A stretch of DNA of 64,000 nt from Clostridia bacterium (lineage in GTDB: Bacteria; Bacillota; Clostridia; Oscillospirales; Acutalibacteraceae), in NCBI GenBank assembly GCA_017516485.1, contig JAFXCH010000058.1, positions 1 to 64,000 on the forward strand, written 5' to 3'. Below are positions 1,331 through 63,907 of this stretch, in pieces. The notes under the pieces are model-generated. The model ran no database searches. It was not told the DNA's origin and worked only from the letters and a program-made list of their open reading frames with translations. The position numbers were made by a program, and so were the translations under genes. Numbering within the stretch: position 1 is the stretch's first letter; each line of letters opens with the position of its first letter.

Positions 1331-1430
1331 TAATGAATTGATTTTAATCAATTCAAATCACGGAGCAAAGCGAGAAATCATGATTTGCAAAAATAATTTT
1401 ACATAATTTGCGTTTCTGCAAAACGCATTG
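1331..1430. repeat. Hairpin-ladder repeat, locus A (short 2+2 form)
   Basis: AATG is followed by a GAATTGATT/AATCAATTC hairpin (1335-1354), AAATCAC, a GGAGC..GCGAG unit, AAATCATGATTT, a GCAAAA-type unit, a degenerate spacer, and a GCGTTT/AAACGC hairpin ending CATT. The central module seen in longer copies is absent, so the two halves join directly at AAATCATGATTT. It lies between convergent genes. 1270-1330 shows nothing else recognisable. Confidence 0.75.
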
Positions 1431-1477
1431 TTTATATCCTCAATTTCCAGCTTGAATTACTGTTTCACGCATCAAAA

Positions 1478-1512
1478 AACCGCACTGCGTACAACAACTA
1501 CGCAGTGCGGTT
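1478..1512 (-). terminator. Intrinsic terminator of the 1521 gene
   Basis: AACCGCACTGCGTA and TACGCAGTGCGGTT form a perfect 14-bp stem with loop CAACAAC. Read on the minus strand it is followed by a run of T, directly after the stop codon of the esterase gene. Confidence 0.85.
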
Positions 1513-1520
1513 GATTTATT

Positions 1521-2573
1521 TTATGCGGTTAAGCTGACACCGAACATTGCAAGAATTTTCTTGAGGAACTCGATTACGTAGTGGAAATAGTCAAAAATGA
1601 GCACCATAATGCCGCCGTCGCCCTGACCTTCGAGGTTACCCATATCAGTTGCCTTTGCACCGTCAAAATCGGATGTATGGGAATAAAGCCAGGAAATCAT
1701 ACCGTTGGGGCTTGTAAGATTAACTGCCTTACCTGTGCCGTCAACAGTTGAAGAATCGGGATACGCTTTGCCGTCATAACCGAACATATCGTTATTTACA
1801 GCAAACCATGCATAGTGATTACTCTTGCAGGGTGTACCGTCGCCCATACGTGCTGTACCAAGAGTTGTAAACCTGCAATCAGCCGCAACAGCACTTGTTG
1901 CACAGACATTGTTCCAGCCGGGTACAACGCTGTTTTTATAGTTTACAATCGGGTCTTTGCTGCTTGATGTAAGCCATACAGGGATATTCTTAATCAGTTC
2001 AGCCTGAGTCTTTGAGGGCGACCATGCAGGGCATATCGGAAAGATTGCGGCAAACATTTCGGGGTATGCAACAGCCATTTTATAAACCATCTTACCGCCC
2101 ATTGAATAACCGCCGGCATAAATTCTGCTAAGGTCTATATTATTCTTATTCTTTGCTATAAAATCGTCAATTGCGGCACGCGCAGGTAAAATCATTGAGT
2201 TGTCCCAAGTGTTACCCATCTCTTCACGTGAGCGGATTGCAAGAATAAACGCACCGTCTACGTTGCCGAAACGGCCCTGATACTCTTCACTTGCCCAGAA
2301 AGCAACATAGTTTTTATCAATCTGCTCGCCTGCGTAGTTACCGTCGCCCAGACCGTGGAACCATACGACAAGCGGATATTTCTTGGTATCGCCGGACTTT
2401 ACTGGTGAGTAATACATATAGTCTACTGAGTAGTCGCCTGCAACGGGGCCTTCACCTGCCTGAAATTTTGCACGCAGGTCCTTAATCTGAGCGCTGAGGT
2501 CAACTGCGTTAGCACCGACAGAAAGGCTGAAAAGAAGTATTGTTACAAGAATAAAAGAAACTATTTTTTTCAT
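1521..2573 (-). CDS. Secreted alpha/beta-hydrolase (esterase-like)
   Basis: This 350-aa protein begins with a clear signal peptide (residues 1-23, MKKIV...GANA). The mature part has the alpha/beta-hydrolase layout: an oxyanion-loop HGLGDG near 73-78, the nucleophile elbow GYSMGG (155-160, Ser157), a likely acid in the SSSKDP segment and a late His in SNHYAW. This pattern matches the polyhydroxybutyrate-depolymerase/feruloyl-esterase-like (LpqC-type) group of secreted esterases, but the substrate cannot be read from the sequence. The last ~30 residues form a hydrophobic/amphipathic helix unlike a hydrolase core. A similar tail ends the secreted protein at 19751-20740. It is transcribed alone and ends at a strong terminator. 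Confidence 0.8.
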   Translation of the reverse strand: MKKIVSFILVTILLFSLSVGANAVDLSAQIKDLRAKFQAGEGPVAGDYSVDYMYYSPVKSGDTKKYPLVVWFHGLGDGNYAGEQIDKNYVAFWASEEYQGRFGNVDGAFILAIRSREEMGNTWDNSMILPARAAIDDFIAKNKNNIDLSRIYAGGYSMGGKMVYKMAVAYPEMFAAIFPICPAWSPSKTQAELIKNIPVWLTSSSKDPIVNYKNSVVPGWNNVCATSAVAADCRFTTLGTARMGDGTPCKSNHYAWFAVNNDMFGYDGKAYPDSSTVDGTGKAVNLTSPNGMISWLYSHTSDFDGAKATDMGNLEGQGDGGIMVLIFDYFHYVIEFLKKILAMFGVSLTA

Positions 2574-2608
2574 ATTTTATTCTCCTTTAATTTTGTATTT
2601 AAATTTTA

Positions 2609-3262
2609 TCAAAACTCGGCGAGTATGTCAACTATATCGCAGGTTGTGTCGACGTAAGCGTCTGCACCTGCGGCAATAAGCTCGTCCTTTCCGAAGCTGC
2701 CTTTGACACCTACAACGTAACAGCCTGCTGCTTTGCCTGAGAGCACACCTGCAACAGCGTCCTCAACAACCATACAGTTTTCGGGTGCAACGCCGACAGA
2801 AGCCGCCGCTTTGAGATAAATCTCGGGGTCGGGCTTTTTGTTGGTAATGTCACTGCCCGTGATTACCGAATCAAACACGCTCTCTTCAACACCGAGCACA
2901 TTTATATTTGTAACAACCTTGCGTCTGTCTGCAGACGATGCAACCGCAAGGCGGTATTTCTTTTTAAGCTCGGGAAGAACAGTGCTCATATTCGGTGCGG
3001 CATCGACAATAGTGCCTGCAAGCTGAATATAAATTTCGTAGCACTCATCCTTCATCTGCGGCAGATATGTACCGCCGTTCTTCTCAACAACTCCGCCGAT
3101 TGCGGCATCCTCACCCATACCGACAAAATCGTTGAAATCTTCAAGCTTTGCATCTATTCCGTACTTTTCCTTAAGGTGCTTTATACAGCACTTCATAAGC
3201 GGAATTTCAGAGTCAACAAGAACTCCGTCCATATCGAATAAAATTGCTTCAATCTTCCTCAT
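2609..3262 (-). CDS. HAD-superfamily hydrolase, beta-phosphoglucomutase-like
   Basis: The 217-aa protein carries the full HAD motif set: DMDG (Asp10 nucleophile, Asp12) in motif I, a Ser/Thr motif II in VASSAD, the motif III lysine in TNKKPDPEIY, and the acidic motif IV in VVEDAVAGV. A helical cap after motif I places it in subfamily I, with beta-PGM and phosphoglycolate-type phosphatases. I chose the ATG at 3262 rather than the in-frame one at 3283, because GGGGG precedes it at good spacing and the family starts at MRKIEAILFD. It overlaps the 3' end of the TtcA-like gene by about 14 nt, so the two are co-transcribed. The substrate is unknown. Confidence 0.85.
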   Translation of the reverse strand: MRKIEAILFDMDGVLVDSEIPLMKCCIKHLKEKYGIDAKLEDFNDFVGMGEDAAIGGVVEKNGGTYLPQMKDECYEIYIQLAGTIVDAAPNMSTVLPELKKKYRLAVASSADRRKVVTNINVLGVEESVFDSVITGSDITNKKPDPEIYLKAAASVGVAPENCMVVEDAVAGVLSGKAAGCYVVGVKGSFGKDELIAAGADAYVDTTCDIVDILAEF

Positions 3263-3980
3263 TTTTATACCCCCAACCGTCAATTCCTTTTCTTTGCATC
3301 GCTCCTATTATTTTAGAGCGGATATCGCCGTACTTTTTTTCATAGCCAGAGAGCAGCTGTTTCATACTCTCCCTCTCCGTCACACCGTCTGCAGGACAGC
3401 GGCTTTTGACAACGGGCAGCTCCATCCTGCGGCAGATTCGTGCAGGCTCACTTTCCCTGCAGAATATCATAGGTCTGATAACGTGAATATCTTTGCGTGA
3501 AAGATATGTTACAGGAGAAAAGCAGCCTATATGACCGCCGTTAAGCAGATTCATCATAAAAGTTTCTGCCGCATCGTCCATATGGTGGCCGAGTGCGACC
3601 TTATTACAGCCTGCTGCCTTAGCCGCATCGTGAAGTGCACCGCGCCGCATCTTCGCACAGAGGCTGCACGGATTTTTTTCGTTACGTGTTTCAAAAATTA
3701 TTTTACCAAGCTCCGTACGCTTGATTATGTACTCGACTCCAAGCTCACCACAAAGCTTCTCAAGCGGAGAAAAATCCGTTTCTTCGCCGCCGAAGCACGG
3801 GTCAAGCGAGATTGCGACAAGCTCAAACGGCTCGGGATAAAATCGCCTGATATTTGCGAGCGCAACTAACATAGCCGTGCTGTCTTTGCCGCCCGAAAGC
3901 CCTACAGCAACACGGTCGCCCGCAGTTATCATATTGTATTTTTCCATTGCCGAGCGCATATGGCTCATCATCTTCTGCAT
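3249..3980 (-). CDS. TtcA-family tRNA 2-thiocytidine synthetase-like protein
   Basis: The 243-aa protein has the PP-loop ATP pyrophosphatase signature SGGKDS at 29-34 and a CSLC pair (Cys105, Cys108), and a third cysteine near 195 (SRCPADG). These are the [4Fe-4S]/catalytic cysteines expected of TtcA, which thiolates C32 of tRNA. The GHHMDD segment (131-136) is a second family hallmark. Length is slightly shorter than enterobacterial TtcA, as usual in Firmicutes. It is the first gene of a two-gene unit with the HAD hydrolase. Hairpin repeat B lies directly upstream of its start, so any promoter would lie in or before that repeat. Confidence 0.85.
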   Translation of the reverse strand: MQKMMSHMRSAMEKYNMITAGDRVAVGLSGGKDSTAMLVALANIRRFYPEPFELVAISLDPCFGGEETDFSPLEKLCGELGVEYIIKRTELGKIIFETRNEKNPCSLCAKMRRGALHDAAKAAGCNKVALGHHMDDAAETFMMNLLNGGHIGCFSPVTYLSRKDIHVIRPMIFCRESEPARICRRMELPVVKSRCPADGVTERESMKQLLSGYEKKYGDIRSKIIGAMQRKGIDGWGYKNEED

Positions 3981-3986
3981 TTTTAC

Positions 3987-4287
3987 TACCTCAATAAAGT
4001 TGATTGCCTATCGTACATTGAGACACCGAGGAAAGTTTCTGCCTCTGTCTTTTCGTTATTAATGCGTTTAAAAAACGCAAATCATGCAAAATCTATTTTG
4101 CAAATCATGATTTTGTAAAAAATCAAATCATGCGAAGCAAATCATTTTTAATACCTCAATGAAGCTGCTATGCTATCGTACATTGAGACACCGAGGAAAG
4201 TGTTAGTCTCTGTCTTTTTATTACCTCAATAAAGCTGCTATGCTATCGTACATTGAGACACCGAGGAAAGTGTTAGCCTCTGTTTTT
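3987..4287 (-). repeat. Hairpin-ladder repeat, locus B (half ladder, three central modules)
   Basis: Three central modules lie in minus orientation at about 3987-4053, 4152-4219 and 4222-4287. Between the first and second is a half ladder with AAATCAT spacers: GCGTTT/AAACGC, GCAAAAT/ATTTTGC, GATTTT/AAATC and GCgaaGC. These are the hairpins normally found in the right half of other copies, here in reverse order. The last two modules are a ~70-bp tandem repeat. The locus abuts the stop codon of the 4287 gene. Confidence 0.8.
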
Positions 4288-4781
4288 CACTGATTCAGCA
4301 GTTCAACAATTTCATCCGAAAGCTTCAGGTATTCTTCCTGCGAGTCGAGGATTTTTTTGGCTATAAACCGCCACGAAAAACGCTCGCTGTAATCCTCTGC
4401 CATATCGTCACGGTAGGGGTTATTTTTTATAAGCTCAATCAGCTCTCGGCTCAAGTCAACATCACCCTTGCGCATAACACGCTTGGCGGTAAAGATAAGC
4501 GAATACTTATATGTATTAAGTCTGCCGAAATAAACGCGGCGAAGATACTCATTCTCTGCAATAACACGCACCATATTATCCTTATTTTTACGGTGCATAA
4601 GGTAGCGGCTGACAAGCCTTGCAAGGCAGGCACTGACCGCCCTTGAATGAGAAAAAAGCTCTTCGTTTTCTTTTAAAATAACGAGCACTTTTTCAAGTGC
4701 CGCCTGCGGATTTTCGGCAGTAAGCGAATCTATTTCAAGACCTATCGCCTTTTCGTTTTCAATAAGATATTCAGCCTGCAT
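4287..4781 (-). CDS. Hypothetical helical protein translated from the murD mRNA
   Basis: I do not recognise this 164-aa protein. It is predicted to be almost entirely alpha-helical, with many Leu/Glu/Lys/Arg heptad-like stretches, no signal, no membrane segment and no cysteine cluster. The start at 4781 (MQAEYLIEN) overlaps the last codons of murD and has GGTGG upstream; the longer in-frame start at 4823 lies deep inside murD and is less likely. Tight overlap implies translational coupling to murD, so a role in envelope growth or division is possible but is only inferred. Confidence 0.7.
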   Translation of the reverse strand: MQAEYLIENEKAIGLEIDSLTAENPQAALEKVLVILKENEELFSHSRAVSACLARLVSRYLMHRKNKDNMVRVIAENEYLRRVYFGRLNTYKYSLIFTAKRVMRKGDVDLSRELIELIKNNPYRDDMAEDYSERFSWRFIAKKILDSQEEYLKLSDEIVELLNQ

Positions 4782-6078
4782 AGTCAGCCACCATCTTTTT
4801 GAAAGCGTTGCCCTTCTCCTCAAAATTGCGGTAACGGTTATAGCTTGCCGCCGCAGGAGAAAGCAGGCAGGCTTTGCCCGAAGCTGTCAGCTCAAAGCTT
4901 TTTTCAACAGCCTCTTCAAGAGTTTCGCAGCGCACGATATTGAGCGTGCATCCCTTTGCCTCAAGCTCATCTGCAATATTATAACCCGTTTCGGGCATAC
5001 AGATAAGATTATCAATCGGTGCGGTCATAAGCTCGACAACAAACTGAGAATAATCAAGACCTCTGTCCATACCGCCGATGATAAGCGTGCCGACGTTGCC
5101 CAGTGCCTTTACGTTGCCGATAACTGCATTGGGAATTGTTGCAATCGCATCATCATAGAAACTGATACCGTTTTTGACGGCAAACTTTTCAAGTCTGTGC
5201 TCGATACCGCCGAATTCGCTGACAGCTTTTTCTATAGCTTCGTCGCTGACACCGAATTCACGCACTGCCGCCACGGCAAAGAAAATATCCTGCCACTGAT
5301 GCTCACCCGGAAGTGCTTCGGTAAGAGTGGTGAGCTTACGGAAAAACTCATCGTTTTCGTATGCCTTACTGCTGACATTCACTCTGCGTGAGCGCACAAA
5401 ACTGAGGTCACCTACAACCGACTCAAGCAGCTGGTCTGCATTGGAGATAAAGAGATTATCTTCACTCTGATAGCGTATAATATTCAGCTTTGCACCGATA
5501 TAGCCCTCGAAGCCGTTATAATGGTCGAGATGCTCGGGATATGCGTTTGTAAAAATAGCAATATCGGGGGAAGCGTGAGAAAACTCGAGCTGATGACAGC
5601 TCATTTCAATAACGGCAACCTTACCTTCGATTTCATCAAGGCTTTCAAAAACAGGTGTGCCGATATTGCCCATAATCATACTGGGCACGCCGCCTGCCTG
5701 AAGCATACGGTAGACCAGAGTTGTAGTAGTAGTCTTACCCTTTGTGCCTGTGATGCCGATTTTTTTGCAGGGCACGAAACGCAGGAATAAATCCATTTCG
5801 CCCGTAACGGTTGTACCCTCTTCAATTTTAACATCACGCAGTGATATACCGGGGCTCTGCATAACGATATCAAAATCATTTATACAGTCGAGATAATTTT
5901 CACCGCAGATTAGAGTGACATTGTCATCCTCAACCTTTACGGGATTTTTATCGGCAACAGTAATTTTCATATCGGGATAGTAACGGCGCAAGAAAGCAAG
6001 AGTTGCCCTGCCCTCTCTGCCCAGACCGAGTATAAGAACACTTTTATTTTTGAAAAAATCAACAAGATTCTGATACAT
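4771..6078 (-). CDS. murD: UDP-N-acetylmuramoyl-L-alanine:D-glutamate ligase
   Basis: MurD adds D-glutamate to UDP-MurNAc-L-Ala in the cytoplasmic phase of peptidoglycan synthesis. The 435-aa length is normal. An N-terminal Rossmann-like domain starts SVLILGLGREG (13-23), the Mur-ligase ATP loop is GITGTKGKTTTTT (108-120), and the EHLDHY motif is the central-domain signature. The C-terminal ligase domain follows. The C-terminal half is less canonical than in Bacillus but the domain order is complete. It lies downstream of secA in the same direction with a 72-nt gap. The next gene overlaps its 3' end. Confidence 0.93.
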   Translation of the reverse strand: MYQNLVDFFKNKSVLILGLGREGRATLAFLRRYYPDMKITVADKNPVKVEDDNVTLICGENYLDCINDFDIVMQSPGISLRDVKIEEGTTVTGEMDLFLRFVPCKKIGITGTKGKTTTTTLVYRMLQAGGVPSMIMGNIGTPVFESLDEIEGKVAVIEMSCHQLEFSHASPDIAIFTNAYPEHLDHYNGFEGYIGAKLNIIRYQSEDNLFISNADQLLESVVGDLSFVRSRRVNVSSKAYENDEFFRKLTTLTEALPGEHQWQDIFFAVAAVREFGVSDEAIEKAVSEFGGIEHRLEKFAVKNGISFYDDAIATIPNAVIGNVKALGNVGTLIIGGMDRGLDYSQFVVELMTAPIDNLICMPETGYNIADELEAKGCTLNIVRCETLEEAVEKSFELTASGKACLLSPAAASYNRYRNFEEKGNAFKKMVADYAG

Positions 6079-6150
6079 AAGGATAACCTCTTTATTTAAA
6101 CAGAGAAGAGACAGTCATGCTGCCCCTTCACCGTTTTTTGTGTTTATAAA

Positions 6151-8904
<2,754 letters not shown>

Positions 8905-9001
8905 TTGTTTACCTTCCTTACGTTAAACTTATGCGTTCAAAATATCATTATACTCTATTATTTAATAAAAATAAAGTGTTTTGGTGTCAGTGCTGTGAAT
9001 T

Positions 9002-9685: not shown

Positions 9686-9710
9686 TCCCGATCCCGATAT
9701 ATTTTTAATT

Positions 9711-9740
9711 ATTATAATACCTATCAGGTGTTCTTGTCAA
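9711..9740 (-). promoter_or_regulatory. Sigma-A promoter of the Crp/Fnr-type gene
   Basis: On the minus strand TTGACA (9735-9740) and TATAAT (9711-9716) are separated by 18 bp, just upstream of the start at 9685. Confidence 0.7.
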
Positions 9741-9774
9741 TGCTGCGGTTTTATCGCAAAATATCAAATTTCAC

Positions 9775-9803
9775 TTGCACTTTCTTTTAAAAGCATATAT
9801 AAT
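9775..9803 (+). promoter_or_regulatory. Sigma-A promoter of the 9845 gene
   Basis: TTGCAC (9775-9780), 17 bp and TATAAT (9798-9803) lie about 40 nt before the GTG start at 9845. Confidence 0.7.
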
Positions 9804-9844
9804 TAGATAGTTATAATGGATTAGTATGCGAATGAGGTGTATTA

Positions 9845-12798: not shown

Positions 12799-12802
12799 AA
12801 AA

Positions 12803-13058
12803 CGAATTGATTTATCAATTCAAATCATGTTGCAACGCAACAAATCATGGAGCAATAAGCGAGAAATCATGGCGAAGCCAAATCATTAAATTATAAAGAC
12901 AATGGCTCTGACTTTCCTCGGTGTCGCTGACTTAACTTTGTGTATCAACTTTATCGAGGCATTAAAAATATGATTTGCCTTACGGCATGATTTGATTTTT
13001 ACAAAATCATGATTTGCAAAATTTTATTTTGCGTGATTTGTGTTTTGTCAAACACATT
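12803..13058 (+). repeat. Hairpin-ladder repeat, locus C copy 1 (full 4+4)
   Basis: Left hairpins are GAATTGA/TCAATTC, GTTGC/GCAAC, GGAGC..GCGAG and GGCgaaGCC, separated by AAATCAT. One central module (about 12893-12966) follows. The right hairpins are GCCttacGGC, GATTTT/AAAATC, GCAAAAT/ATTTTGC and GTGTTT/AAACAC, separated by ATGATTT or GTGATTT. It ends CATT and begins about 5 nt after the pth stop codon. Confidence 0.88.
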
Positions 13059-13120: not shown

Positions 13121-13373
13121 AATGAATTGATTTATCAATTCAAATCATTGAGCAAAAGCGAAAAATCATGGCTGAAAGCCAAATCATGCGGCAGCTAATC
13201 ATAAAAGCACAAAGATAATGGCATAACGTTCCTCGGTGCTGCAATCTTTGCTTTGTGTATCGATTTTATTGAGGTATTAAAAATATGATTTGCCTTACGG
13301 CATGATTTGATTTTTACAAAATCATGATTTGCAAAATAAATTTTGCATGATTTGTGTTTTTTCAAAACACATT
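13121..13373 (+). repeat. Hairpin-ladder repeat, locus C copy 2 (full 4+4)
   Basis: It has the same layout as copy 1: AATG, four left hairpins, one central module (about 13207-13282), four right hairpins and CATT. Differences are compensatory: the fourth-type hairpin is GGCTgaaAGCC instead of GGCgaaGCC. The central module has the longest uninterrupted outer arms, CACAAAG/CTTTGTG. It ends about 40 nt before mfd. Confidence 0.88.
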
Positions 13374-16899: not shown

Positions 16900-17384
16900 A
16901 ATGAATTGATTTATCAATTCAAATCATGTTGCTTAAGCAACAAATCACGGAGCGTTAAGCGAGAAATCATGGCGAAGCCAAATCATTAAAGCATAAAGAA
17001 AATGGATTGAAATTTCTTCGGTGCCGCTATCTTAACTCTATGTATTAACTTTATTGAGGCATTAAGACATAAAGACAACGGCACAAACTTTCTTCGGTGT
17101 CGCTGACTTAACTTTGTGTATCAACTTTATCGAGGCATTAAAACACAAAGACAATGGCTCTGACTTTCCTCGGTGTCGCTGACTTAACTCTGTGTATCAA
17201 CTTTATCGAGGCATTAAGACATAAAGACAACGGCACAAACTTTCTTCGGTGCCGCTATCTTAACTCTGTGTATCAACTTTATCGAGGCATTAAAAATGAT
17301 TTGCCTTGCGGCATGATTTGATTTCTTACGAAATCATGATTTGCAAAAATAAATTTTGCATGATTTGCGTTTTAAAAACGCATT
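16900..17384 (+). repeat. Hairpin-ladder repeat, locus D (full 4+4, four tandem central modules)
   Basis: AATG and four left hairpins with AAATCAT/AAATCAC spacers are followed by four direct repeats of the central module at about 16990-17066, 17066-17141, 17141-17217 and 17218-17294 (period about 76 bp). Four right hairpins then end in CATT at 17381-17384. The four modules are mosaics of two sub-types that differ at the same positions. Two right hairpins carry compensatory changes: GATTTC/GAAATC and GCGTTT/AAACGC. It begins 14 nt after the mfd stop codon. Confidence 0.9.
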
Positions 17385-33892: not shown

Positions 33893-34154
33893 AATGAATC
33901 GGTTTACTGATTCAAATCATGTTGCGTTAAGCAACAAATCATGGAGCGATAAGCGAGAAATCATGGCGAAGCCAAATCATTAAAAGATTATAACAATGAC
34001 ATAAGCTTTACTCTGTATCATTAACTTTATTCTGTGTATCAATTTCATTGAAATATTTAAAATATGATTTGCCTTACGGCATGATTTGATTTCCTCGAAA
34101 TCGTGATTTGCAAAATGAAATTTTGCATGATTTGTATTTTTTTCAAAATACATT
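33893..34154 (+). repeat. Hairpin-ladder repeat, locus E (full 4+4)
   Basis: AATG, four left hairpins with AAATCAT, one degenerate central module (about 33985-34060), four right hairpins with ATGATTT/GTGATTT, and CATT. The first hairpin is GAATCGG/CTGATTC instead of GAATTGA/TCAATTC, and the last is GTATTTT/AAAATAC, both compensatory. An in-frame start at 34108 inside this repeat is not used. Confidence 0.88.
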
Positions 34155-50668: not shown

Positions 50669-50678
50669 ATATATTCAC

Positions 50679-51026
50679 AAGCGGATTGGGCAGCTGCGGC
50701 GGTAAGGACTTATCACCCTTACCGACGAGGAAAGTCCGGGCTTCACAGAGCAGGATAACGGCTAACGGCCGCCGAGGGTGACCTCCGGGACAGTGCAACA
50801 GAGATATACCGCCTGCAACTTTCAGTTGCAGGTAAGGGTGGAAAGGCGAGGTAAGAGCTCACCGGCGTGCAGGAGACTGTACGGCCCTGTAAACCCTATC
50901 CGAAGCAACACCGAATGGAGTGGCTTGCTCGGCCCATACTCCGACGGGTGGCTTGAGCGTTGCGGCAACGCAACGCCTAGAAAGATAGTTGCCTTAAACG
51001 ACAGAACCCGGCTTACAGATCCGCTT
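50679..51026 (+). ncRNA. rnpB: RNase P RNA, bacterial class A-like
   Basis: The RNA subunit of RNase P processes tRNA 5' ends. AAGCGGAT at 50679-50686 pairs with ATCCGCTT at 51019-51026 (P1). The conserved core motifs GAGGAAAGTCCGGGC near 50728 and ACAGAACCCGGCTTAC near 51001 are present, as is the AGAGAT-containing mid region. About 348 nt is normal. No strong hairpin terminator follows; a T run lies at about 51032, and the next gene starts soon after. Confidence 0.95.
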
Positions 51027-51063
51027 GTGATTTTTTACTACAACGAAAAGGAAAGATTGGGAA

Positions 51064-54722: not shown

Positions 54723-54724
54723 TT

Positions 54725-54758: not shown

Positions 54759-55087
54759 AATGAATTGATTTATCAATTCAAATCATGGAGCGGTAGCGAG
54801 AAATCATGGCGAAGCCAAATCATGCGGAGCAAATCATTAAAACAGAAGACAGTGGCACAACTTTTCTCGGTACTACGGACTTTCCTATGTGCATCGATTT
54901 CATTGAGGTATTAAAAAACAGAAAGACAGTGGCACAACTTTTCTCGGTGCTACGGACTTTCATTTGTGCATCAACTTAATTGAGATATTTAAAATATGAT
55001 TTGCCTTGACAGGCAGTGATTTGATTTTTTCAAAATCATGATTTTCAAAATAAATTTTGCATGATTTGTGTTTTTGCAAAACACATT
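54759..55087 (+). repeat. Hairpin-ladder repeat, locus F (full 4+4, two central modules)
   Basis: AATG follows the terminator directly. Four left hairpins, two tandem central modules (about 54841-54914 and 54917-54990), four right hairpins and CATT. The first right hairpin is TGCCT-TGAC-AGGCA, extended by one compensatory pair relative to TGCC/GGCA. Positions 55088-55102 are unremarkable. Confidence 0.88.
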
Positions 55088-55134: not shown

Positions 55135-55149
55135 AACTTTTAAACTGAA

Positions 55150-55932: not shown

Positions 55933-56081
55933 ATCTGTTCCTCCGTTTTGTATGTATTTGCGCACTAACACGCACTTATTATTTTAGTATTATTTATATT
56001 AGCATAAAACTTCAACAAAATCAACACATTTTTATTTAATTTTATTAAGACTTTATAAAACAGCAATCCCATATGTCGGAT

Positions 56082-56816: not shown

Positions 56817-56820
56817 TTAA

Positions 56821-57711
56821 TTAAAAGCTGCCCATAAGGCCTGCGAGAGCACCGATATTATCCTCTGTGATCTCTTTATAGCCTGAAGGTATACTGAATA
56901 CGCCGTCGGGTACATTTGCAGAGAACTCATTGAAGTTTGTAACCTCTGATGTGCCATTGGAATCGACAATGTCAATTCTTTTGAGGTTATCGTTGCTGTC
57001 GAAATAATACTTGTTGGTGTTTACACCGTCTTGGTATGTTTCGCAGATATAGCTCTTACCGTCAAGCTGGACATTTGTTGTTTCGACGTACTTAAGCTCA
57101 TCGCTTGCCATCTTTTCTACCATACTCATCATTTTCTGTGTATCCATCGGACCAACACTTTCGGGAGGCATTGTGATGTAGTACTTAAGTGAGGGGAAAA
57201 TCATTTTGACAGAGTCTTTAGTGTAAATAACACGTACGTTTGTAGCGCCCATTTTCATTTCAGTGGCAAAATTATCGCCCTTGATGTACACCTTCACAGC
57301 TACACTCTGGCCTTCCATAGGCATTGAGCCGTCTACAAAGATTGCATTTTTGCTTGTTATGCTGTTAACAAGCTTCTTGAGCTTACTGTCTACAGGTACA
57401 CCTGATGCATCAACGTCAACATCTACCTTTTCACCATCGGGTGTTGTTTCAGCAGAGGAAGAATTTGATGAAGGCTTTGTTGTTACGGGTCTTGTAACGG
57501 TTATAACGGATGTATTGCCCTCAGCATCGGTAACGGCTTCGCCTGATGCGTCGGTCTGTACTACGGTTACTTCCTCGTAAGCTACACCTGCTGTTGTTGC
57601 ATTGGTTTCGTTTTCATCCTTCTTATCCTTATCGCCCTTACCGCAAGCGGCAAAAACGAAGAGCATTGCTGCAAGGAAAGCAAGGATTGCTACAGAATTT
57701 CTCTTTTTCAT
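56821..57711 (-). CDS. Lipoprotein with a LolA/LppX-like beta domain
   Basis: The 296-aa protein has a lipoprotein signal (lipobox FAAC, Cys near 23), a low-complexity Thr/Ser/Asp/Glu linker (about 33-100) and a folded domain (about 105-296) with MEGQSVAVKVYIKGDNFATEMKMG, KMIFPSLKYYITMPP and PDGVFSIPSGYKEI. The last motif resembles LolA/LppX-type lipoprotein carriers. Function is inferred only from that resemblance. It precedes the SDR gene in one transcript. Confidence 0.75.
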   Translation of the reverse strand: MKKRNSVAILAFLAAMLFVFAACGKGDKDKKDENETNATTAGVAYEEVTVVQTDASGEAVTDAEGNTSVITVTRPVTTKPSSNSSSAETTPDGEKVDVDVDASGVPVDSKLKKLVNSITSKNAIFVDGSMPMEGQSVAVKVYIKGDNFATEMKMGATNVRVIYTKDSVKMIFPSLKYYITMPPESVGPMDTQKMMSMVEKMASDELKYVETTNVQLDGKSYICETYQDGVNTNKYYFDSNDNLKRIDIVDSNGTSEVTNFNEFSANVPDGVFSIPSGYKEITEDNIGALAGLMGSF

Positions 57712-57784
57712 TTTTTATTCTCCTTTTTAATAAAGTATTATTATGATAGCTTAATTATATATATTTTGTCAAGCACGGGTAAAA

Positions 57785-58068
57785 TGTGGCAGAGCTAAAA
57801 ATCAAATCGTACGAAGCAATTCATTAAAACATAAAGGCAATAACATAAGTTTTTCTCGGTGCTGCAGTCTTTATTTTGTGCATCGATTTTATTGAGGTAT
57901 TAAAACACAAAGACAATGGCTCTGACTTTCCTCGGTGTCTCTGACTTAACTTTGTGTATCAACTTTATCGAGGCATTAAAAATGATTTGCCTTACGGCAT
58001 GATTTGGTTAAAAACCATGATTTGTTGCTTAACGCAACACGATTTGAATTGATTCATCAATTCATTAA
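57785..58068. repeat. Hairpin-ladder repeat, locus G (re-shuffled right half, two central modules)
   Basis: A degenerate left side is followed by two central modules at about 57829-57903 and 57905-57979, then ATGATTT-spaced hairpins GCCttacGGC, GGTT/AACC, GTTGC/GCAAC and GAATTGA/TCAATTC, ending CATT. The last two are hairpins found in the left half elsewhere. The locus ends 3 nt from the stop codon of the CorC-type gene. Nothing else is visible in 57712-57784. Confidence 0.82.
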
Positions 58069-58071
58069 ATA

Positions 58072-59490
58072 TCAGTCATCCTGCTCATCTTTATTGCGGC
58101 GCCTGCCAAGAAGAAGGTGAGGCTCATCCTCATCATCGTCATCCTCTTCTTCCACGGGAAGAATCTCGACCTTGAGCTTACCTATACGTTTATCTTCGAG
58201 GTTGAGGATTGTAAAGTGAAGATTCTCATAATCAATCTCGTTCATTTCGCCGTCGTTAGGCAGATAACCGAGCAGACTTATTACAAAGCCGCCGATTGTA
58301 TCATATTCATCTTCGGGAAGGTTTACACCGACGTGTTCATTTACTTCGTCAATGGGTGTTGTGCCGTCAACGGTGAATGTAGTTTCGTCTATAACGGAAA
58401 AATCCTCTTCCTCATTGTCGTATTCATCCTGAATATTACCGACAATTGACTCGAGCAGGTCCTCAAGAGTAACGATACCTGCAGTACCGCCGTATTCGTC
58501 AACAACAACAGCCATCTGCACGCGACGTGCCGTCATCTCCTGGAAAAGCATTCCGCATTTCATTGACTCGGGTACAAAGTACGGCTCACGCATAATTTTG
58601 CGAAGATTCTCCTGCTTGGGCACGGACGAGCCGATGTAACCGATAAGGTCTTTGATATAGACAATACCGATGATTTTATCAAGGCTTTCTTCGTAAACGG
58701 GAATTCTGGAATAGCCTTCCTTCTCCGCAATCTCAACAACATCCTGAATCGGGTCATTGATTTCTACAGCCGAAACATCTGTACGGTGAGTCATAATGTC
58801 GCCTGCATCAATATCGTCAAACTCAAATATGTTGTTAATCATTTCCTTCTGGGTGTCTTCAATAACACCCTTCTCGCCGCCGACATCAACCATCATACGG
58901 ATTTCTTCTTCGGTAACCTCTTCGGGCTCTGAATTGGGGTCAATACCAATCAGCCTGAGAATTCCGTTTACCGAAAGCGAAAGCACCTTTACAAACGGCT
59001 TTGTGACCGCTGCAACAAAGGTGAGCACACCTGCGATACGGAAAGAAATCTTCTCGGGATTGTACATGGCAACACGCTTGGGCACAAGCTCGCCGAGTAC
59101 AAGTGAGAAATAGGATGTGATAAGCGTGATTACAACAAGGCTGAAGCCTTCAACTACCGACATCGGTATATTGATTGCGTCAGCAACTGAGCTGAGTGCA
59201 CCCGAAAGCATCTCGACAAAGCTCTGTGAAGCAGATGCGGATGACAAGAAACCGGCGAGAGTAACGCCTATCTGGATTGTTGAGAGGAATTTGCTGGGAT
59301 TGCTTGTGAGTTTAAGCAGCTTTTTAGCCTTTTTGTTTCCCTCCTGTGCCTGCTTTTCAAGCTTGGCATCGTTGAGAGAGATAATCGCTATTTCGCTCAT
59401 TGCAAAAAACGCATTGATAAGAATAAGTACTAAAAGCAATACGATTTTAAAAATAAGTGAAGTTGCAGTATTAGGCCCGGGGTCGTCCAT
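58072..59490 (-). CDS. CNNM/HlyC-CorC-type membrane protein with CBS pair
   Basis: The 472-aa protein has an N-terminal DUF21/CNNM domain with four hydrophobic segments (about 10-185), two CBS domains (GDIMTHRTDVSAVEI..., ...RRVQMAVVVDEYGGTAGIVTLEDLLE) and a C-terminal CorC_HlyC domain. CNNM relatives act in Mg2+ or Co2+ transport. The C-terminal ~25 residues are highly acidic then basic (EEEDDDDEDE...GRRRNKDEQDD), perhaps a metal-sensing tail. It is monocistronic. Confidence 0.9.
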   Translation of the reverse strand: MDDPGPNTATSLIFKIVLLLVLILINAFFAMSEIAIISLNDAKLEKQAQEGNKKAKKLLKLTSNPSKFLSTIQIGVTLAGFLSSASASQSFVEMLSGALSSVADAINIPMSVVEGFSLVVITLITSYFSLVLGELVPKRVAMYNPEKISFRIAGVLTFVAAVTKPFVKVLSLSVNGILRLIGIDPNSEPEEVTEEEIRMMVDVGGEKGVIEDTQKEMINNIFEFDDIDAGDIMTHRTDVSAVEINDPIQDVVEIAEKEGYSRIPVYEESLDKIIGIVYIKDLIGYIGSSVPKQENLRKIMREPYFVPESMKCGMLFQEMTARRVQMAVVVDEYGGTAGIVTLEDLLESIVGNIQDEYDNEEEDFSVIDETTFTVDGTTPIDEVNEHVGVNLPEDEYDTIGGFVISLLGYLPNDGEMNEIDYENLHFTILNLEDKRIGKLKVEILPVEEEDDDDEDEPHLLLGRRRNKDEQDD

Positions 59491-59582
59491 TTCAGACTTT
59501 CTCCTTTCAGTTGCGGTTTTACCGCCTATAAGAATTATAATAATTATTAAACATCTATTATATAGATGGTTTAATCGTGGAT

Positions 59583-59836
59583 AATGAATTGATTTATCAA
59601 TTCAAATCGTGGAGCGTTAAGCGAGAAATCATGGCGTTTACGCCAAATCATGCGACAGCAAATCATAAAAAACAAAGACAACGGCAGATGTTTTTCTCGG
59701 TGCAATCATCTTTATTGTGTGTATCAATTTTATTGAGGTATTAAAAATGATTTGCCTACGGCATGATTTGATTTTTTTCAAAATCATGATTTGCAAAATT
59801 TCATTTTGCGTGATTTGCGTTTTTACAAAACGCATT
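59583..59836 (+). repeat. Hairpin-ladder repeat, locus H (full 4+4)
   Basis: AATG, four left hairpins including GGCG-TTTA-CGCC (59633-59644), one central module (about 59670-59745), four right hairpins ending GCGTTTT/AAAACGC and CATT. It ends 4 nt from the alr stop codon on the opposite side. Positions 59491-59582 contain a likely promoter region but no gene. Confidence 0.88.
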
Positions 59837-59840
59837 GTAC

Positions 59841-60977
59841 TTATTTCCCGTCGATATAAACTCTCGGAACACGCTTTGTAATATCGCACACATACTCGTA
59901 GTTGAAGCTGCCTGCGGTTTTTGCAAGCTCTTCAACCGTGAGCCTCTGGTTGCCGTCGGTACCGACGATTGTCACCTCGTCGCCCTGCTTTACATCGGGA
60001 ATATCGGTAACATCTACCATAAACTGGTCCATACAAACTCTGCCTATAACCGGAGCACTGTGGCCGTTGATGAGCACCCTACCCTTATTGGTAAGCAGAC
60101 GCGGATAGCAATCGCCATAGCCGCAGGGTATTGTAGCAACAAGCGTATCACGCTTTGCCATAAATGCCGCACCGTAGCCGACGGTATCACCCTCGCGTAC
60201 TTTTTTGATATAAGCGATATGGCTTTTAATCTGCATTACGGGAGTAGTCGGCAGATTTTCAAACTTAACCTCGTCAGACGGGTCAAGACCGTATGTGACT
60301 ATACCGCAACGCACCATATCAAAACAGCCGCCGTCAAAATCCATAATAGCGGCAGAGTTGTAGAGGTGACGCAAAGGAATATTCACACCTGCCTGCTCAA
60401 TACGCCCGGTAAAGCTCTCAAACAAAGCCCTCTGCTTATTTGCAAAGCTCTTATCGGCAAAGTCAGCACAGGCAAGGTGAGAGAAAACACCTTTGACATT
60501 GATGCCCTCAAGAGAAGCAATCTGCTTTATCTCTTCAAGGCTTTCGTCGCACGGAATAAGACCGATTCGGTGCATACCCGTATCAATCTTGATATGAACA
60601 CCTGCTTTTCTGCCCAGTCTGAGTGCAACTTCTGAGAGCTGCTTTGCAGTTTCATATTGGAAAACGGTAAGGTCGATACCGTTAAGTACAGCCGCTTCAA
60701 ACAGCTCGGGGAATGCGTAGCTGAGCACAAGAATCGGCTTTTTGATACCGCTTGTGCGAAGCTGCAAGCCCTCTTCTACAGTAGCAACGCCGTAGGCATA
60801 AGCACTGCTGTCCTCAAGAGCTTTAGCAATCGGCACAGCACCGTGACCGTAAGCATCAGCCTTGAGGATTACCATAACCTTAACGCCGTCGCCGACTCTT
60901 GACTGTACGGCGGCGACATTCGAGCGTACTGCATCGAGGTCTATATAGGCACATACTCTGCTGTTAGTGTTCATCAA
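59841..60977 (-). CDS. alr: Alanine racemase
   Basis: Alr makes D-alanine for peptidoglycan. The 378-aa PLP enzyme has the Schiff-base lysine in VILKADAYGHG (near 34), the IDTGMHRIG segment, and the second-base tyrosine in DTVGYGAAF. The C-terminal beta domain is complete with GRVCMDQFMVDV. It is monocistronic between ladders H and I. Confidence 0.95.
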   Translation of the reverse strand: MMNTNSRVCAYIDLDAVRSNVAAVQSRVGDGVKVMVILKADAYGHGAVPIAKALEDSSAYAYGVATVEEGLQLRTSGIKKPILVLSYAFPELFEAAVLNGIDLTVFQYETAKQLSEVALRLGRKAGVHIKIDTGMHRIGLIPCDESLEEIKQIASLEGINVKGVFSHLACADFADKSFANKQRALFESFTGRIEQAGVNIPLRHLYNSAAIMDFDGGCFDMVRCGIVTYGLDPSDEVKFENLPTTPVMQIKSHIAYIKKVREGDTVGYGAAFMAKRDTLVATIPCGYGDCYPRLLTNKGRVLINGHSAPVIGRVCMDQFMVDVTDIPDVKQGDEVTIVGTDGNQRLTVEELAKTAGSFNYEYVCDITKRVPRVYIDGK

Positions 60978-61001
60978 AATTAAATTACCTTTAAATATAT
61001 T

Positions 61002-61256
61002 AATGAAATGATTTTAATCATTTCAAATCATGGAGCGGCAAGCGAGAAATCATGGCGATATGCCAAATCATGCGAAGCAAATCATTAAAACAGAAAGACA
61101 GTGGCACAACTTTTCTCGGTACTACGGACTTTCCTATGTGCATCGATTTCATTGAGGTATTTTAAATATGATTTGCCTTACGGCATGATTTGATTTCAAT
61201 GAAATCATGAATTGCAAAATATAAATTTTGCATGATTTGCACCTTACGGTGCATTT
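61002..61256 (+). repeat. Hairpin-ladder repeat, locus I (full 4+4)
   Basis: AATG and GAAATGATT/AATCATTTC (61005-61024) start the left half. Spacers are AAATCAT. One central module (about 61089-61160) follows. Right hairpins include GATTTC-AAT-GAAATC and end GCACC-TTAC-GGTGC (61239-61252), quite different from the GTGTTT/AAACAC of other copies. It ends at the stop codon of metY. Confidence 0.88.
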
Positions 61257-62536
61257 TATTTGATTGCATCAAGAGCCTGCTGGATATCCTCGATAATATC
61301 ATCGACATTTTCGATACCGACGGAGAAACGGATAAGGTCGGGTGAAACGCCGCACTCAACAAGCTCGCTGTCGCTGAGCTGACGGTGAGTTGAGGATGCA
61401 GGGTGAAGCACACAAGTGCGTGCGTCTGCAACGTGGGTTACGATTGCGGCAAGCTTGAGAGAATTCATAAACTTCTCTGCCTTTTCTCTGCCGCCCTTTA
61501 CCCCGAATGATACAACACCGCAGGTGCCGTTCGGCATATACTTCTGAACAAGCGGATAGTACTTGTTGGAAGGCAGTGCAGGGTAATTAACCCAGGAAAC
61601 CTGCTCGTTATTTTCAAGGTACTCGGCAACCTTGAGAGCGTTTGAGCAGTGACGCTCCATACGCAGTGCAAGCGTTTCAAGGCCGAGGTTAAGATAAAAT
61701 GAATTCTGCGGAGCAGGAGTTGAGCCGTAGTCACGCAGAAGCTGTGCAACGATTTTTGTAACATAGCCTGCCTTGCCGAAATCACGGGTATAAACCGCAC
61801 CGTGGTAGCTTTCGTCAGGCTGAGTAAGACCGGGGAATTTATCATTCTGCTCCCAGTCAAAATTACCGCTGTCGACAACGACACCGCCGATTATATTTGC
61901 GTGACCCTCCATATACTTTGTTGTGGAATGGGTTACGATATCTGCACCGAATTCAAACGGACGGCAGTTAATCGGAGTCGGGAAAGTATTGTCTATAATA
62001 AGCGGAACGCCGTGTGCGTGGGCAACGCGTGCAAACTTCTCAATATCGAGCACGTCGAGTGAGGGGTTTGCGATTGTTTCGCCGAAAACAGCCTTTGTAT
62101 TGGGACGGAAGAGTGCTGAAATCTCCTCTTCGCTTGCATTCGGGTCAACAAAGGTTACGTCGATACCGATTTTACGCATTGTGACGTTAAAGAGGTTGAA
62201 CGTGCCGCCGTAGATTGTTGCGGCAGAGATAAAGTGGTCGCCCGCACCCATGATATTGATGAGTGAGAAGAAGTTTGCCGCCTGACCCGAAGAGGTGAGC
62301 ACTGCGGCAACACCACCCTCAAGCATAGCGATCTTCTGTGCGACGATATCGCTTGTAGGGTTTGCAAGGCGTGTATACATATAACCGGGCTCGAGGTCAA
62401 ACAGCTTTGCCATTGCCTCGCTTGTATCGTACTTGTAGGTTGTGCTCTGGTAAATCGGGAGCACTCTCGGCTCACCGTTTTTCGGCTCGTAAGCACCCTG
62501 AACACATTTTGTATCTATTCTGTAATTTTCTTTCAT
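61256..62536 (-). CDS. metY: O-acetylhomoserine sulfhydrylase-like PLP enzyme
   Basis: The 426-aa Cys/Met-metabolism enzyme starts MKENYRIDTKCVQGAYEPKNGEP and has the PLP lysine in THSTTKYMEGH, the DNTFPTPINCRPFEFGADIV segment and SVGIENVDDIIEDIQQAL. Length and ending match MetY rather than the shorter MetB/MetC. It would make homocysteine from O-acetylhomoserine and sulfide. I use ATG 62536 with AAGGAG; a longer frame to 62656 runs into apgM. It follows apgM by 31 nt. Confidence 0.9.
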   Translation of the reverse strand: MKENYRIDTKCVQGAYEPKNGEPRVLPIYQSTTYKYDTSEAMAKLFDLEPGYMYTRLANPTSDIVAQKIAMLEGGVAAVLTSSGQAANFFSLINIMGAGDHFISAATIYGGTFNLFNVTMRKIGIDVTFVDPNASEEEISALFRPNTKAVFGETIANPSLDVLDIEKFARVAHAHGVPLIIDNTFPTPINCRPFEFGADIVTHSTTKYMEGHANIIGGVVVDSGNFDWEQNDKFPGLTQPDESYHGAVYTRDFGKAGYVTKIVAQLLRDYGSTPAPQNSFYLNLGLETLALRMERHCSNALKVAEYLENNEQVSWVNYPALPSNKYYPLVQKYMPNGTCGVVSFGVKGGREKAEKFMNSLKLAAIVTHVADARTCVLHPASSTHRQLSDSELVECGVSPDLIRFSVGIENVDDIIEDIQQALDAIK

Positions 62537-62567
62537 AAAGAAAACTCTCCTTAAATTGCGAATTGTA

Positions 62568-63779
62568 TTACTCTGCGAAAAAATGCTGAATAAGCGAAGG
62601 ACCGAAATCGACAAAGTTGCCTGTTGCCTCGGCTGTCTTTTCGTTGATTGATTCAACGCCGCTATCCTTCTCGCCCTGCTTGTGGTAAATCATATATGGA
62701 ACAGGGTCGGAAGCGTGAGTCTTTGTCTTTATCGGTGTGGGATGGTCGGGAAGAATCATCACCTTATAGTCATCATACTTCTCAAGTGCCTCAAGAAGAA
62801 TCGGAAGCACCTTTTCGTCGATAATCTCGATTGAGCGGACCTTGTTTTCGGGCTCTGCTCTATGGCCGCACTCGTCGGGTGCTTCAATATGAATATATAC
62901 GAAATCGCAGCCGTTTTCGAGTGCATCAACGGCAGCCTTTGCTTTGCCCTCGAAATTAGTGTCAATATAGCCTGTTGCACCCTCAACCTCGGGTACGAGC
63001 ATACCTGCACCGATACCGATACCTTTGAGCAGGTCAACTGCAGAAACGATACAGCCCTTCATACCGAATTTCTCTTCAAAATTCTCAAGCTGAGGCTTTG
63101 TGCCTTCACCCCAGAGCCAGATTGAATTTGCAGGGCGCTTGCCCTCGGCAATTCTTCTCTTGTTTACGGGATGGTCCTTGAGCAAGTCATAGCTTTCACG
63201 CATCATCTTTGTAAGCTTTTCGGCTGAAGGTGCGGTTGAGATATAGCTGCCGACAACTCTGTCGGAAATATCGTGAGGCGGAGTCATTGTACCAAGCTGA
63301 GTTGTACCGCCGTGGTGAATAAGGCAGTGACGGTAGCTGACACCTGGATAGAAATCAAACTCACCGCCGCCGAAATGCTCCTGCACGGTTTTGATGATTT
63401 CAGCCGCATCCTCGCTGGAAATATCACCTGCGGAATAATCAATCATAGTCTTGTCGTCGTAATTCTCTTCGTCTGAAAGAGTTACGACGTTACATCTGAG
63501 AGCAACATCGGTAACACTCATCTTAACACCGATGCTGATAGCCTCGAGCGGAGAGCGACCTGTATAGCAGACTGCAGGGTCGTAGCCGAGCACGCTGAGG
63601 TTTGCAACGTCACTGCCGGGCTTGAGGCCTGCGGCAACGGTACGTACAAGACCAACCTCACCCTTGCTTGCCATACGGTCAAACAGCGGCTTCTTTGCAA
63701 GCTCCATAGGAGTCTTACCGCCGAGCGCATCTACGGGGTAGTCTGCCATTCCGTCATATAAAACTACTGCGTATTTCAT
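62568..63779 (-). CDS. apgM: ApgM-type cofactor-independent phosphoglycerate mutase (possible homoserine kinase analogue)
   Basis: The 403-aa alkaline-phosphatase-superfamily protein has MKYAVVLYDGMADYP (metal-binding Asp), KPGSDVANLSVLGYDP (nucleophile Ser region), and VYIHIEAPDECGHRAE / ILPDHPTPI metal ligands. Archaeal-type ApgM interconverts 2- and 3-phosphoglycerate. In anaerobic bacteria a paralogue beside threonine/methionine genes is believed to replace homoserine kinase. Its position directly before metY suits that view. Either role is possible. Confidence 0.85.
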   Translation of the reverse strand: MKYAVVLYDGMADYPVDALGGKTPMELAKKPLFDRMASKGEVGLVRTVAAGLKPGSDVANLSVLGYDPAVCYTGRSPLEAISIGVKMSVTDVALRCNVVTLSDEENYDDKTMIDYSAGDISSEDAAEIIKTVQEHFGGGEFDFYPGVSYRHCLIHHGGTTQLGTMTPPHDISDRVVGSYISTAPSAEKLTKMMRESYDLLKDHPVNKRRIAEGKRPANSIWLWGEGTKPQLENFEEKFGMKGCIVSAVDLLKGIGIGAGMLVPEVEGATGYIDTNFEGKAKAAVDALENGCDFVYIHIEAPDECGHRAEPENKVRSIEIIDEKVLPILLEALEKYDDYKVMILPDHPTPIKTKTHASDPVPYMIYHKQGEKDSGVESINEKTAEATGNFVDFGPSLIQHFFAE

Positions 63780-63836
63780 AGTATTACCAAACTTTCTGTA
63801 TGCTGTGATATATATACTGAAATTTATTGACCAAAA

Positions 63837-63907
63837 ATGCGTTGAAAACGCAAATCATGCAAAATTTATTTTGCAAATCATGATTTGAATTGATAAATCA
63901 ATTCATT
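63837..63907. repeat. Hairpin-ladder repeat, locus J (short 2+1 form)
   Basis: AATG, GCGTT/AACGC, AAATCAT, GCAAAAT/ATTTTGC, AAATCATGATTT, GAATTGA/TCAATTC, CATT. There is no central module. It ends 3 nt from the stop codon of the next gene. Confidence 0.78.

What the first reader, a model, noticed from the sequence alone, without database searches (positions are those of the whole stretch)
1331..63907. Ten-locus 'hairpin-ladder' repeat with a strict 4+4 grammar
Loci A to J share one architecture. Seven copies (C1, C2, D, E, F, H, I) have AATG, four hairpins separated by AAATCAT, a central module, four hairpins separated by ATGATTT, and CATT. The termini AATG/CATT and the heptamers AAATCAT/ATGATTT are reverse complements across the centre. 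If both halves pair, each heptamer pair makes a 7-bp rung with a hairpin on either side. I know of no named repeat (REP/BIME, ERIC, RUP, MITE, attC) with variable hairpins on constant flipping spacers. It could be a single-strand substrate for a transposase, a structured RNA or a nucleoid-binding site.
Basis: partly seen in the sequence, partly recalled or inferred. Interest (0 to 1): 0.93.

Follow-up and report, generated by a model that had tools for sequence, protein, structure and literature searches.

The report
Mobile four-plus-four DNA hairpin ladder
Uncultured gut bacteria of the class Clostridia carry many copies of a short non-coding DNA element made of two facing rows of usually four hairpins strung on one constant spacer word; copies are present in one sister species and absent in another, and the element likely works as folded single-stranded DNA moved by an enzyme not yet known.

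Summary
The repeat is real, genome-wide and not unique to this contig. Each half is a row of hairpins on a constant word (AAATCAT, 'alpha'). Two-sided copies are most often 4+4 (37 of 68 parsed), and the number four is mostly kept while the members swap. Sister species differ in which sites are occupied, and two shared sites hold the element inverted. A second family with spacer ATATCG ('beta') has the same plan and sits at some of the same gene-end sites in relatives. A third, with spacer ATTTCAC, matches the plan of the Rfam 'Gut-1 RNA'. Loops carry the strongest signal. On the strand reading hairpin-AAATCAT/ATATCG, loops are GNA (59 versus 4 TNC), GNNA (45 versus 0) and stems carry tandem G.A (40 versus 0). 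The tetraloops show no preference for the GNRA (RNA) form, none is UUCG, and one hairpin is the hyperstable DNA mini-hairpin GCGAAGC. Best reading: a non-autonomous mobile element whose recognised form is folded single-stranded DNA. The mobilising enzyme is unknown; Y1/RAYT transposases were tested and not found in several ladder carriers.

The parts
1332..1429 (+). Locus A: reduced alpha ladder (hp1, hp3 | hp7, hp8), centre and inner hairpins missing; the joint is AAATCATGATTT
   Evidence: same site and orientation in G003
4061..4145 (-). Locus B: right half only (hp8-hp7-hp6-hp4b) between centre modules
   Evidence: same site in G003 and G001
12801..13058 (+). Locus C1: 4+4 ladder (1-2-3-4 | 5-6-7-8), begins AACG
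   Evidence: absent at this site in G003 and G001
13121..13373 (+). Locus C2: 4+4 ladder (1-3-4-4b | 5-6-7-8); at this site G003 keeps only its first hairpin, and a copy 97% identical over 13121-13321 lies elsewhere in G003
16900..17384 (+). Locus D: 4+4 ladder (1-2-3-4 | 5-6-7-8) with about four tandem centre modules
33893..34154 (+). Locus E: 4+4 ladder, 5 bp after a stop codon; inverted copy at this site in G003, no ladder in G001
54759..55087 (+). Locus F: 4+4 ladder with two centre modules, directly after a terminator-like hairpin
   Evidence: no ladder at this site in G003 or G001
57982..58066 (+). Locus G: half ladder (hairpins 5, 4, 2, 1) preceded by centre modules
59583..59836 (+). 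Locus H: 4+4 ladder; beta ladder at the same site in G003 and G001
61002..61255 (+). Locus I: 4+4 ladder; beta ladder at the same site in G003 and G001
63836..63907 (-). Locus J: reduced ladder; G003 and G001 keep a two-sided ladder here; the deletion joint lies in the repeated CATGATTT
16987..17295 (+). Centre modules of D, about 75 bp each, tandem; also free-standing around locus B

Best explanation
The hairpin ladder is a short non-coding repeat that is present in one sister species and absent in another, and it is likely a non-autonomous mobile element whose recognised form is folded single-stranded DNA, moved in trans by an enzyme that is not yet known. Shown: pooled over both halves, the strand that reads hairpin-spacer carries hairpins with GNA or GNNA loops and tandem G.A pairs; because the spacers are inverted, this is the opposite strand in the two halves. 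The number four is usually kept while hairpins are swapped. Inferred: when the region becomes single-stranded or is negatively supercoiled, the four hairpins on the marked strand fold and leave the spacer words exposed in a row. A DNA-recombining protein reads the spacers, and cuts or joins at them would give the deletions, inversions and half-swaps seen between copies. Different spacer words (AAATCAT, ATATCG, ATTTCAC) would belong to different recognising proteins.
For: Copies: 47 matching places in the own genome. Presence/absence: at the C site G003 lacks C1 and keeps only the first hairpin of C2, while a copy 97% like C2 sits at another site there; E, no ladder in G001; K, in G000 and G003 but not G001; M, in G000, none in G003, G004, G006. 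Opposite orientation at a shared site: E in G003 and M in G001. Joints in spacer words: J, A, and hp4b/hp5 exchanged between halves in L328. Strand-specific folding marks on the hairpin-spacer strand: GNA 59 versus TNC 4 of 101 triloops; GNNA 45 versus TNNC 0 of 75 tetraloops; tandem GA 40 versus TC 0 in 384 distinct segments. Against 423 tri- and 419 tetraloop hairpins elsewhere in three contigs, p = 8e-20 and 2e-16 (background stems 5 bp or more, ladder stems 2 bp or more). DNA rather than RNA: third base of GNNA is 26 R to 19 Y (p = 0.37), no UUCG among 75 tetraloops, hp4b is GCGAAGC with only two base pairs. PMC4686876 (passages) gives GNA/GNNA loops with at least two G-C pairs as stable DNA mini-hairpins and a Tm of up to 78 C for GCGAAGC. 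PMC4496689 (passages) says that small N4 hairpins needing a G..A loop and C:G closure extrude at sub-physiological supercoiling and that SSB melts only the other strand. Four-hairpin rule: 37 of 68 two-sided ladders exactly 4+4, 64 of 68 with at least one half of exactly four; 55 one-sided arrays were set aside. 35 of 39 alpha left halves have four hairpins of varying membership. Same spacer with unrelated hairpins in other Clostridia.
Against: No enzyme was found. No plausible gene family recurs beside ladders in different genomes, and Y1/RAYT genes were not found in several ladder carriers. I saw no clear target duplication or exact empty site by eye; intergenic sequence around insertions has drifted too far. 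Sites are often shared between species, also by the beta family, which a freely moving element need not show. Most genomes are metagenome assemblies. GNRA-type loops, tandem G.A pairs and G.T wobbles (12 G.T versus 5 A.C mismatches, p = 0.14) are also compatible with RNA. Segments counted are distinct sequences, not independent events, and 145 of 353 segments had no qualifying hairpin and were dropped before the loop count. The higher DNA-fold stability of the marked strand (14 of 14 halves of seven window copies) rests on energy parameters that may already reward such loops.
Confidence: 0.5

Rival explanations
1. A host-maintained cis element at gene 3' ends, for example a supercoil buffer or a protein-binding DNA hub, that is conserved at sites and swaps type in place.
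For: All ten window loci lie beside the 3' end of at least one long ORF. Alpha in G000 is matched by beta at the same site in G003 at H, I, L and N, and A, B, D, J, K keep an alpha ladder in place in G003. The four-hairpin number is mostly kept.
Against: Several sites have no ladder in close relatives (E, F, K, M, beta 89463). Eight of ten congeners have no match to the alpha pattern and it is patchy across the order. Copies 97% alike sit at different sites.
Confidence: 0.25
2. A structured RNA or sRNA family, as Rfam files the related Gut-1 motif.
For: A beta half matches Gut-1 RF01706 at 47.4 bits, E = 2e-8 in 400 bases, 1.8e-6 in 37 kb, with weaker matches in L316, L577 and L566. Stems are conserved with compensating changes (hp8 pair 2: 30 CG, 5 TA; hp1 pair 5: 31 TA, 4 CG, 1 GC). 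G.T mismatches outnumber A.C 12 to 5, not significantly.
Against: The Gut-1 score is under its curated cut-off of 50; four of six beta-bearing loci and the alpha loci given give no match. No UUCG among 75 tetraloops, no preference for GNRA over GNYA, and a 2-bp hairpin is kept. The two halves mark opposite strands, so one transcript would carry only half of them in marked form.
Confidence: 0.13
3. A REP/BIME-like element mobilised by RAYT (Y1, HUH) transposases.
For: The own genome has RAYT-like Y1 genes; among the proteins read, two groups occur only in the three alpha-carrying congeners (two G006 proteins were not read). A RAYT-like fragment lies about 1.1 kb from a ladder in L365, and a Y1 gene about 0.6 kb from a beta ladder in L408. 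REPs too are mostly downstream of genes (PMC3733652, abstract).
Against: Ladder carriers G063, G381, G424, G426, G428 and G433 have no Y1 match at E <= 0.01, though assemblies are incomplete. The three congeners are close relatives, so shared genes may be descent. The other G000 RAYT genes read have no ladder beside them. No GTAG or CGTC tag at the hairpin foot.
Confidence: 0.07
4. A MITE of an ordinary DDE transposon whose long terminal inverted repeats happen to contain hairpins.
For: Short, non-coding, dispersed, inverted halves, presence/absence between species.
Against: The halves share only the spacer word and the hairpins differ. No consistent target duplication was seen. Strand-specific loop rules are not expected of duplex end-binding sites. 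An autonomous partner was not found, though the search was not exhaustive.
Confidence: 0.05

Closest known systems
Gut-1 RNA (Rfam RF01706)
   Same: Hairpins separated by a constant word (GUGAAAU in the consensus); a beta half matches it at 47.4 bits. Three DNA loci show an inverted array with ATTTCAC/GTGAAAT.
   Different: Listed by its authors as a noncoding RNA of human gut sequence only (PMC2864571, passages); the model has 77 positions. The DNA element has two inverted halves and is dispersed, and its strand marks point to the strand opposite to the one modelled (the model's loops UUGC, CUUCG and UUC read GCAA and GAA there).
REP / BIME / REPIN with RAYT
   Same: Palindromic units, often in inverted pairs, downstream of genes, many copies.
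   Different: REPs carry a GTAG or CGTC foot (PMC3733652, abstract and the section on REP dimers read). Here the spacer is constant and hairpins vary, in rows of about four, and Y1 genes were not found in several carriers.
Integron attC sites
   Same: A constant 7-mer with variable folded single-strand hairpins (recalled).
   Different: attC is one hairpin whose two ends carry complementary core boxes (recalled); here about eight hairpins sit on one word in two inverted rows, without cassette genes.
Phage N4 early promoters
   Same: Small hairpins with G..A loops and C:G closure, strand-specific, extruding under supercoiling (PMC4496689, passages).
   Different: Single hairpins used as promoters by a phage polymerase; no array, no dispersal.
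STAXI motif
   Same: Tandem structured units that its authors considered as single-stranded DNA (PMC2864571, passages).
   Different: Its UUCG loops led those authors to RNA; the ladder tetraloops counted have none.

Membership tests
REP/BIME (RAYT-mobilised) | GTAG or CGTC tag at the hairpin foot | tested here: not met
   Foot word is ATGATTT/AAATCAT or CGATAT/ATATCG
REP/BIME (RAYT-mobilised) | RAYT/Y1 gene in the carrier | tested here: not met
   No Y1 match at E <= 0.01 in carriers G063, G381, G424, G426, G428, G433; other carriers, among them G000, G001, G003, G082, G425 and G429, do have one
REP/BIME (RAYT-mobilised) | Lies mainly downstream of genes | tested here: met
   All ten window loci flank at least one ORF 3' end
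MITE | Terminal inverted repeats of one sequence | tested here: not met
   Outer hairpins hp1 and hp8 differ; only spacers and AATG/CATT are inverted copies
MITE | Target-site duplication | tested here: inconclusive
   None seen by eye; flanks too diverged
MITE | Autonomous partner with the same ends | tested here: inconclusive
   No plausible recurring gene beside ladders; no whole-genome search for each transposase family
Gut-1 RNA RF01706 | Score at or above the curated cut-off (50 bits) | tested here: not met
   Best beta half 47.4 bits; alpha loci given: none
Gut-1 RNA RF01706 | Expressed as RNA | not testable with these tools
   No expression data
Integron attC | Folded single-strand hairpin recombined by an IntI integrase | not tested
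   No integrase search was run; attC core boxes are recalled, not searched
   Observed identity equals shuffled identity in three sets

The most novel reading that the evidence does not exclude
A new class of mobile DNA in gut Clostridia that lives as folded single-stranded DNA: rows of four hyperstable mini-hairpins on a protein-read spacer word, with several spacer families competing for the same gene-end sites and moved by an undescribed single-strand recombinase; the Rfam 'Gut-1 RNA' is one half of such an element read from the wrong strand.
Probability: 0.4. Interest if true: 0.92.

Novelty: categorically new. Interest (0 to 1): 0.82.

Why it matters
Folded single-stranded DNA is rarely the unit that evolution preserves in a chromosome; here three strand marks point to it. 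If right, a gut repeat class of which one member has been filed as an RNA is a mobile DNA element, an unknown DNA-processing enzyme with word-specific recognition waits to be found, and the rule of four hairpins per half becomes a direct test of how that enzyme assembles.

Tried and rejected
Rung pairing across the centre: no covariation. RAYT/Y1 as universal mobiliser: not found in several carriers. A linked mobiliser gene: 575 ORFs of the fetched ladder loci were clustered; only two families recurred in three or more genome groups, an XRE-type regulator and an RNA-methyltransferase-like protein, judged to be chance (names are my reading of the sequence). Known RNA family in the window at Rfam's own cut-offs: only RNase P. 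Plasmid and phage records: no match to copy E at E <= 0.001. The genome-contig scan also stopped at its limit, so the taxon list is partial. Gene-end inverted copies as the origin of the terminal hairpin of beta: suggestive at some sites, but similar hairpin words recur at unrelated sites, so I do not claim it. G.U wobble test for RNA: 12 G.T versus 5 A.C, inconclusive. A regex census of hairpin order printed nothing and was redone. The MAFFT alignment A1 misaligns hp8 and was not used for pair counts; no covariance model was built and no expression data were available. Paper searches for an earlier description; on DNA hairpin loops. None of the listings names such a ladder; that covers only these terms in the held open-licence library.
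Full report
What is there. A full copy reads AATG, four hairpins separated by AAATCAT, a centre, four hairpins separated by ATGATTT, CATT, with scattered one-letter departures in the spacers. Read outward from the centre both halves have the same unit, ATGATTTG-hairpin-C. The word occurs 88 times against 16.9 expected, and the two-spacer pattern has 61 matches in the own genome against 0 for its reversed control. DNA similarity to copy E finds 47 matching places in the 2.17 Mb genome of 65 contigs. The copies lie between long ORFs, each beside at least one ORF 3' end; for J that ORF ends at 63910.

Number and membership of hairpins. A parser that allows one mismatch per spacer, and needs at least three spacers in a half, finds 68 two-sided ladders in the stretches given to it (alpha in the genus 33, alpha in other taxa 13, beta in the genus 11, beta elsewhere 11) and 55 one-sided arrays. 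Of the 68, 37 are exactly 4+4 and 64 have at least one half of exactly four; the other four are 3+3 (2) and 5+3 (2). Some fifth spacers are one-mismatch words next to the end. Two reversed control words give none. Alpha left halves draw mainly on five hairpin kinds, and of 39 read, 35 have four: 1-3-4-4b (13), 1-2-4-4b (13), 1-2-3-4 (6, one with its outer hairpin labelled late), 1-2-4-5 (2), 1-3-2-4b (1). Four have three. One further left half (L333) was filed by the labeller as a right half. Orthologous copies are counted separately. So the number is mostly kept while the members change.

Other families. Relatives of the genus show a second ladder with spacer ATATCG/CGATAT (beta), also often 4+4, either converging or diverging. 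The beta three-spacer pattern has a match in 75 of 197 genomes of the order; some of these are coding chance matches. The alpha pattern has a match in 12 of 394, of which I judge 5 real from the listed matches (G000, G003, G063, G082, G381). In distant gut Clostridia the same alpha word carries quite different hairpins. A third family with ATTTCAC/GTGAAAT is seen at three loci (L613, L676, L714); it was sought because the Rfam Gut-1 consensus has GUGAAAU between its hairpins. Its few loops follow the same rule only in part. Diverging ladders often have a centre of 27-29 nt: 8 of 11 in alpha of other taxa, 5 of 10 in beta elsewhere.

Movement. Synteny with congeners G003 (mostly 87-94% identity) and G001 (mostly 79-89%) gives a site table. 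Alpha at the same site in G000 and G003: A, B, D, J, K, and E inverted. At the C site G003 lacks C1 and keeps only the first hairpin of C2, but a copy 97% identical to 13121-13321 sits near the site corresponding to window 8925. F: no ladder in G003 or G001. E: none in G001. K: none in G001. M: none in G003, G004, G006, and inverted in G001. H, I, L, N: alpha in G000, beta in G003; H and I beta also in G001, L beta also in G004; at D, G004 has beta. J in G000 is a deletion of a ladder still two-sided in G003 and G001; its joint lies in CATGATTT. Inversion and independent insertion in the other orientation cannot be told apart here. The beta copy at G000 89463 is shared with G003 and missing in G001 and G007.

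Which strand, and DNA or RNA. Of 353 distinct segments between exact spacers, 208 had a qualifying hairpin and were counted. Oriented on the strand reading hairpin-AAATCAT or hairpin-ATATCG, triloops are GNA 59, TNC 4, other 38 (of 101). Tetraloops are GNNA 45, TNNC 0, other 30 (of 75). 76 of 101 triloops close with C-G. Background hairpins of three contigs have GNA/TNC in 67 of 423 and GNNA/TNNC in 58 of 419 (their stems were 5 bp or more, those of the ladders 2 bp or more). Tandem GA/GA mismatches occur in 40 and TC/TC in 0 of 384 segments. These marks hold in alpha and beta and in other taxa, so they are not one copy's accident, although copies are related. The third base of GNNA is 26 purine to 19 pyrimidine, so the RNA rule GNRA is not followed (p = 0.37), and no tetraloop is UUCG. 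hp4b is GCGAAGC, a 2-bp hairpin; PMC4686876 (passages read) gives its melting temperature as up to 78 C as DNA. PMC4496689 (passages read) reports that hairpins with such loops extrude in supercoiled DNA and that SSB melts the other strand only. The G.T versus A.C test does not decide (12 to 5).

Rungs. Spacers do not covary across the centre, so the paired ladder is at most a possible fold. The DNA minimum-energy fold of copy E does pair part of the halves, but selection does not visibly maintain it.

Enzyme. RAYT-like Y1 genes exist in the own genome (four matches; six with a looser limit, two of them pieces of one gene). Among the proteins I read, two groups occur only in G000, G003 and G001; two G006 matches were not read. 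But G063, G381, G424, G426, G428 and G433 carry alpha ladders and have no Y1 match at E <= 0.01. In all, 12 of the 24 genomes of that call had a match, carriers among them. Incomplete assemblies weaken each single absence. No plausible gene recurs beside ladders. The mobiliser is unknown.

Relation to what is known. A beta half matches Gut-1 RNA below its curated cut-off (47.4 of 50 bits). Its authors list it as a noncoding RNA of human gut sequence (PMC2864571, passages read); in those passages they discuss single-stranded DNA for another motif, STAXI, and prefer RNA because of UUCG loops. By the same kind of argument the ladders point to DNA. REP, MITE and attC membership fails or stays open as listed.

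Source. Congener G003 is probably goat cecum MAG RGIG1745, because two of its contig lengths, 55269 and 80307, equal those of JAFQEL010000009.1 and JAFQEL010000046.1; this is inference.

Verdict. A mobile element recognised as folded single-stranded DNA is the best explanation at about even odds. A site-bound host element is the strongest rival.

Noticed in passing
G000:C9 (window and beyond): Alpha copies are crowded here: 27 of 61 two-spacer matches of the own genome lie in this 111.5 kb contig of a 2.17 Mb genome; the syntenic contigs hold 12 of 34 in G003 and 8 of 20 in G001. Cause unknown (local hopping or chromosome position).
   Followed up: partly
G004:C12:54826-54967, G006:C11:173070-173234, G009:C111:20556-20761, G005:C8:21816-22067: At the same intergenic sites other congeners carry further array-like repeats: tandem words such as TGCAAAATGCAAAA or AATGAATAATGAA, inverted around a centre with hairpins. 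Possibly kin of the ladders without hairpins.
   Followed up: no
G003:C33:103010-103033, G004:C15:45780-45804, G004:C12 near 54960: Next to beta or other array repeats there is often a long perfect hairpin whose outer arm overlaps the gene's 3' end, in one case about 15 bp that look like an inverted copy of coding sequence.
   Followed up: partly
window 3981-4290 and 16987-17295: The centre module (about 75 bp, ACCGAGGAAAG ... TTTATTGAGG) is also free-standing and tandem; it may be an independent repeat that lodges in ladder centres.
   Followed up: partly
G000:C14:71722, C14:11234, C21:47697: RAYT-like Y1 proteins; in the first a stretch VGATLRGRP looks like a GTAG-type REP inserted in frame (my reading, not tested).
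   Followed up: no
window 50678-51031: RNase P RNA class A.
   Followed up: no
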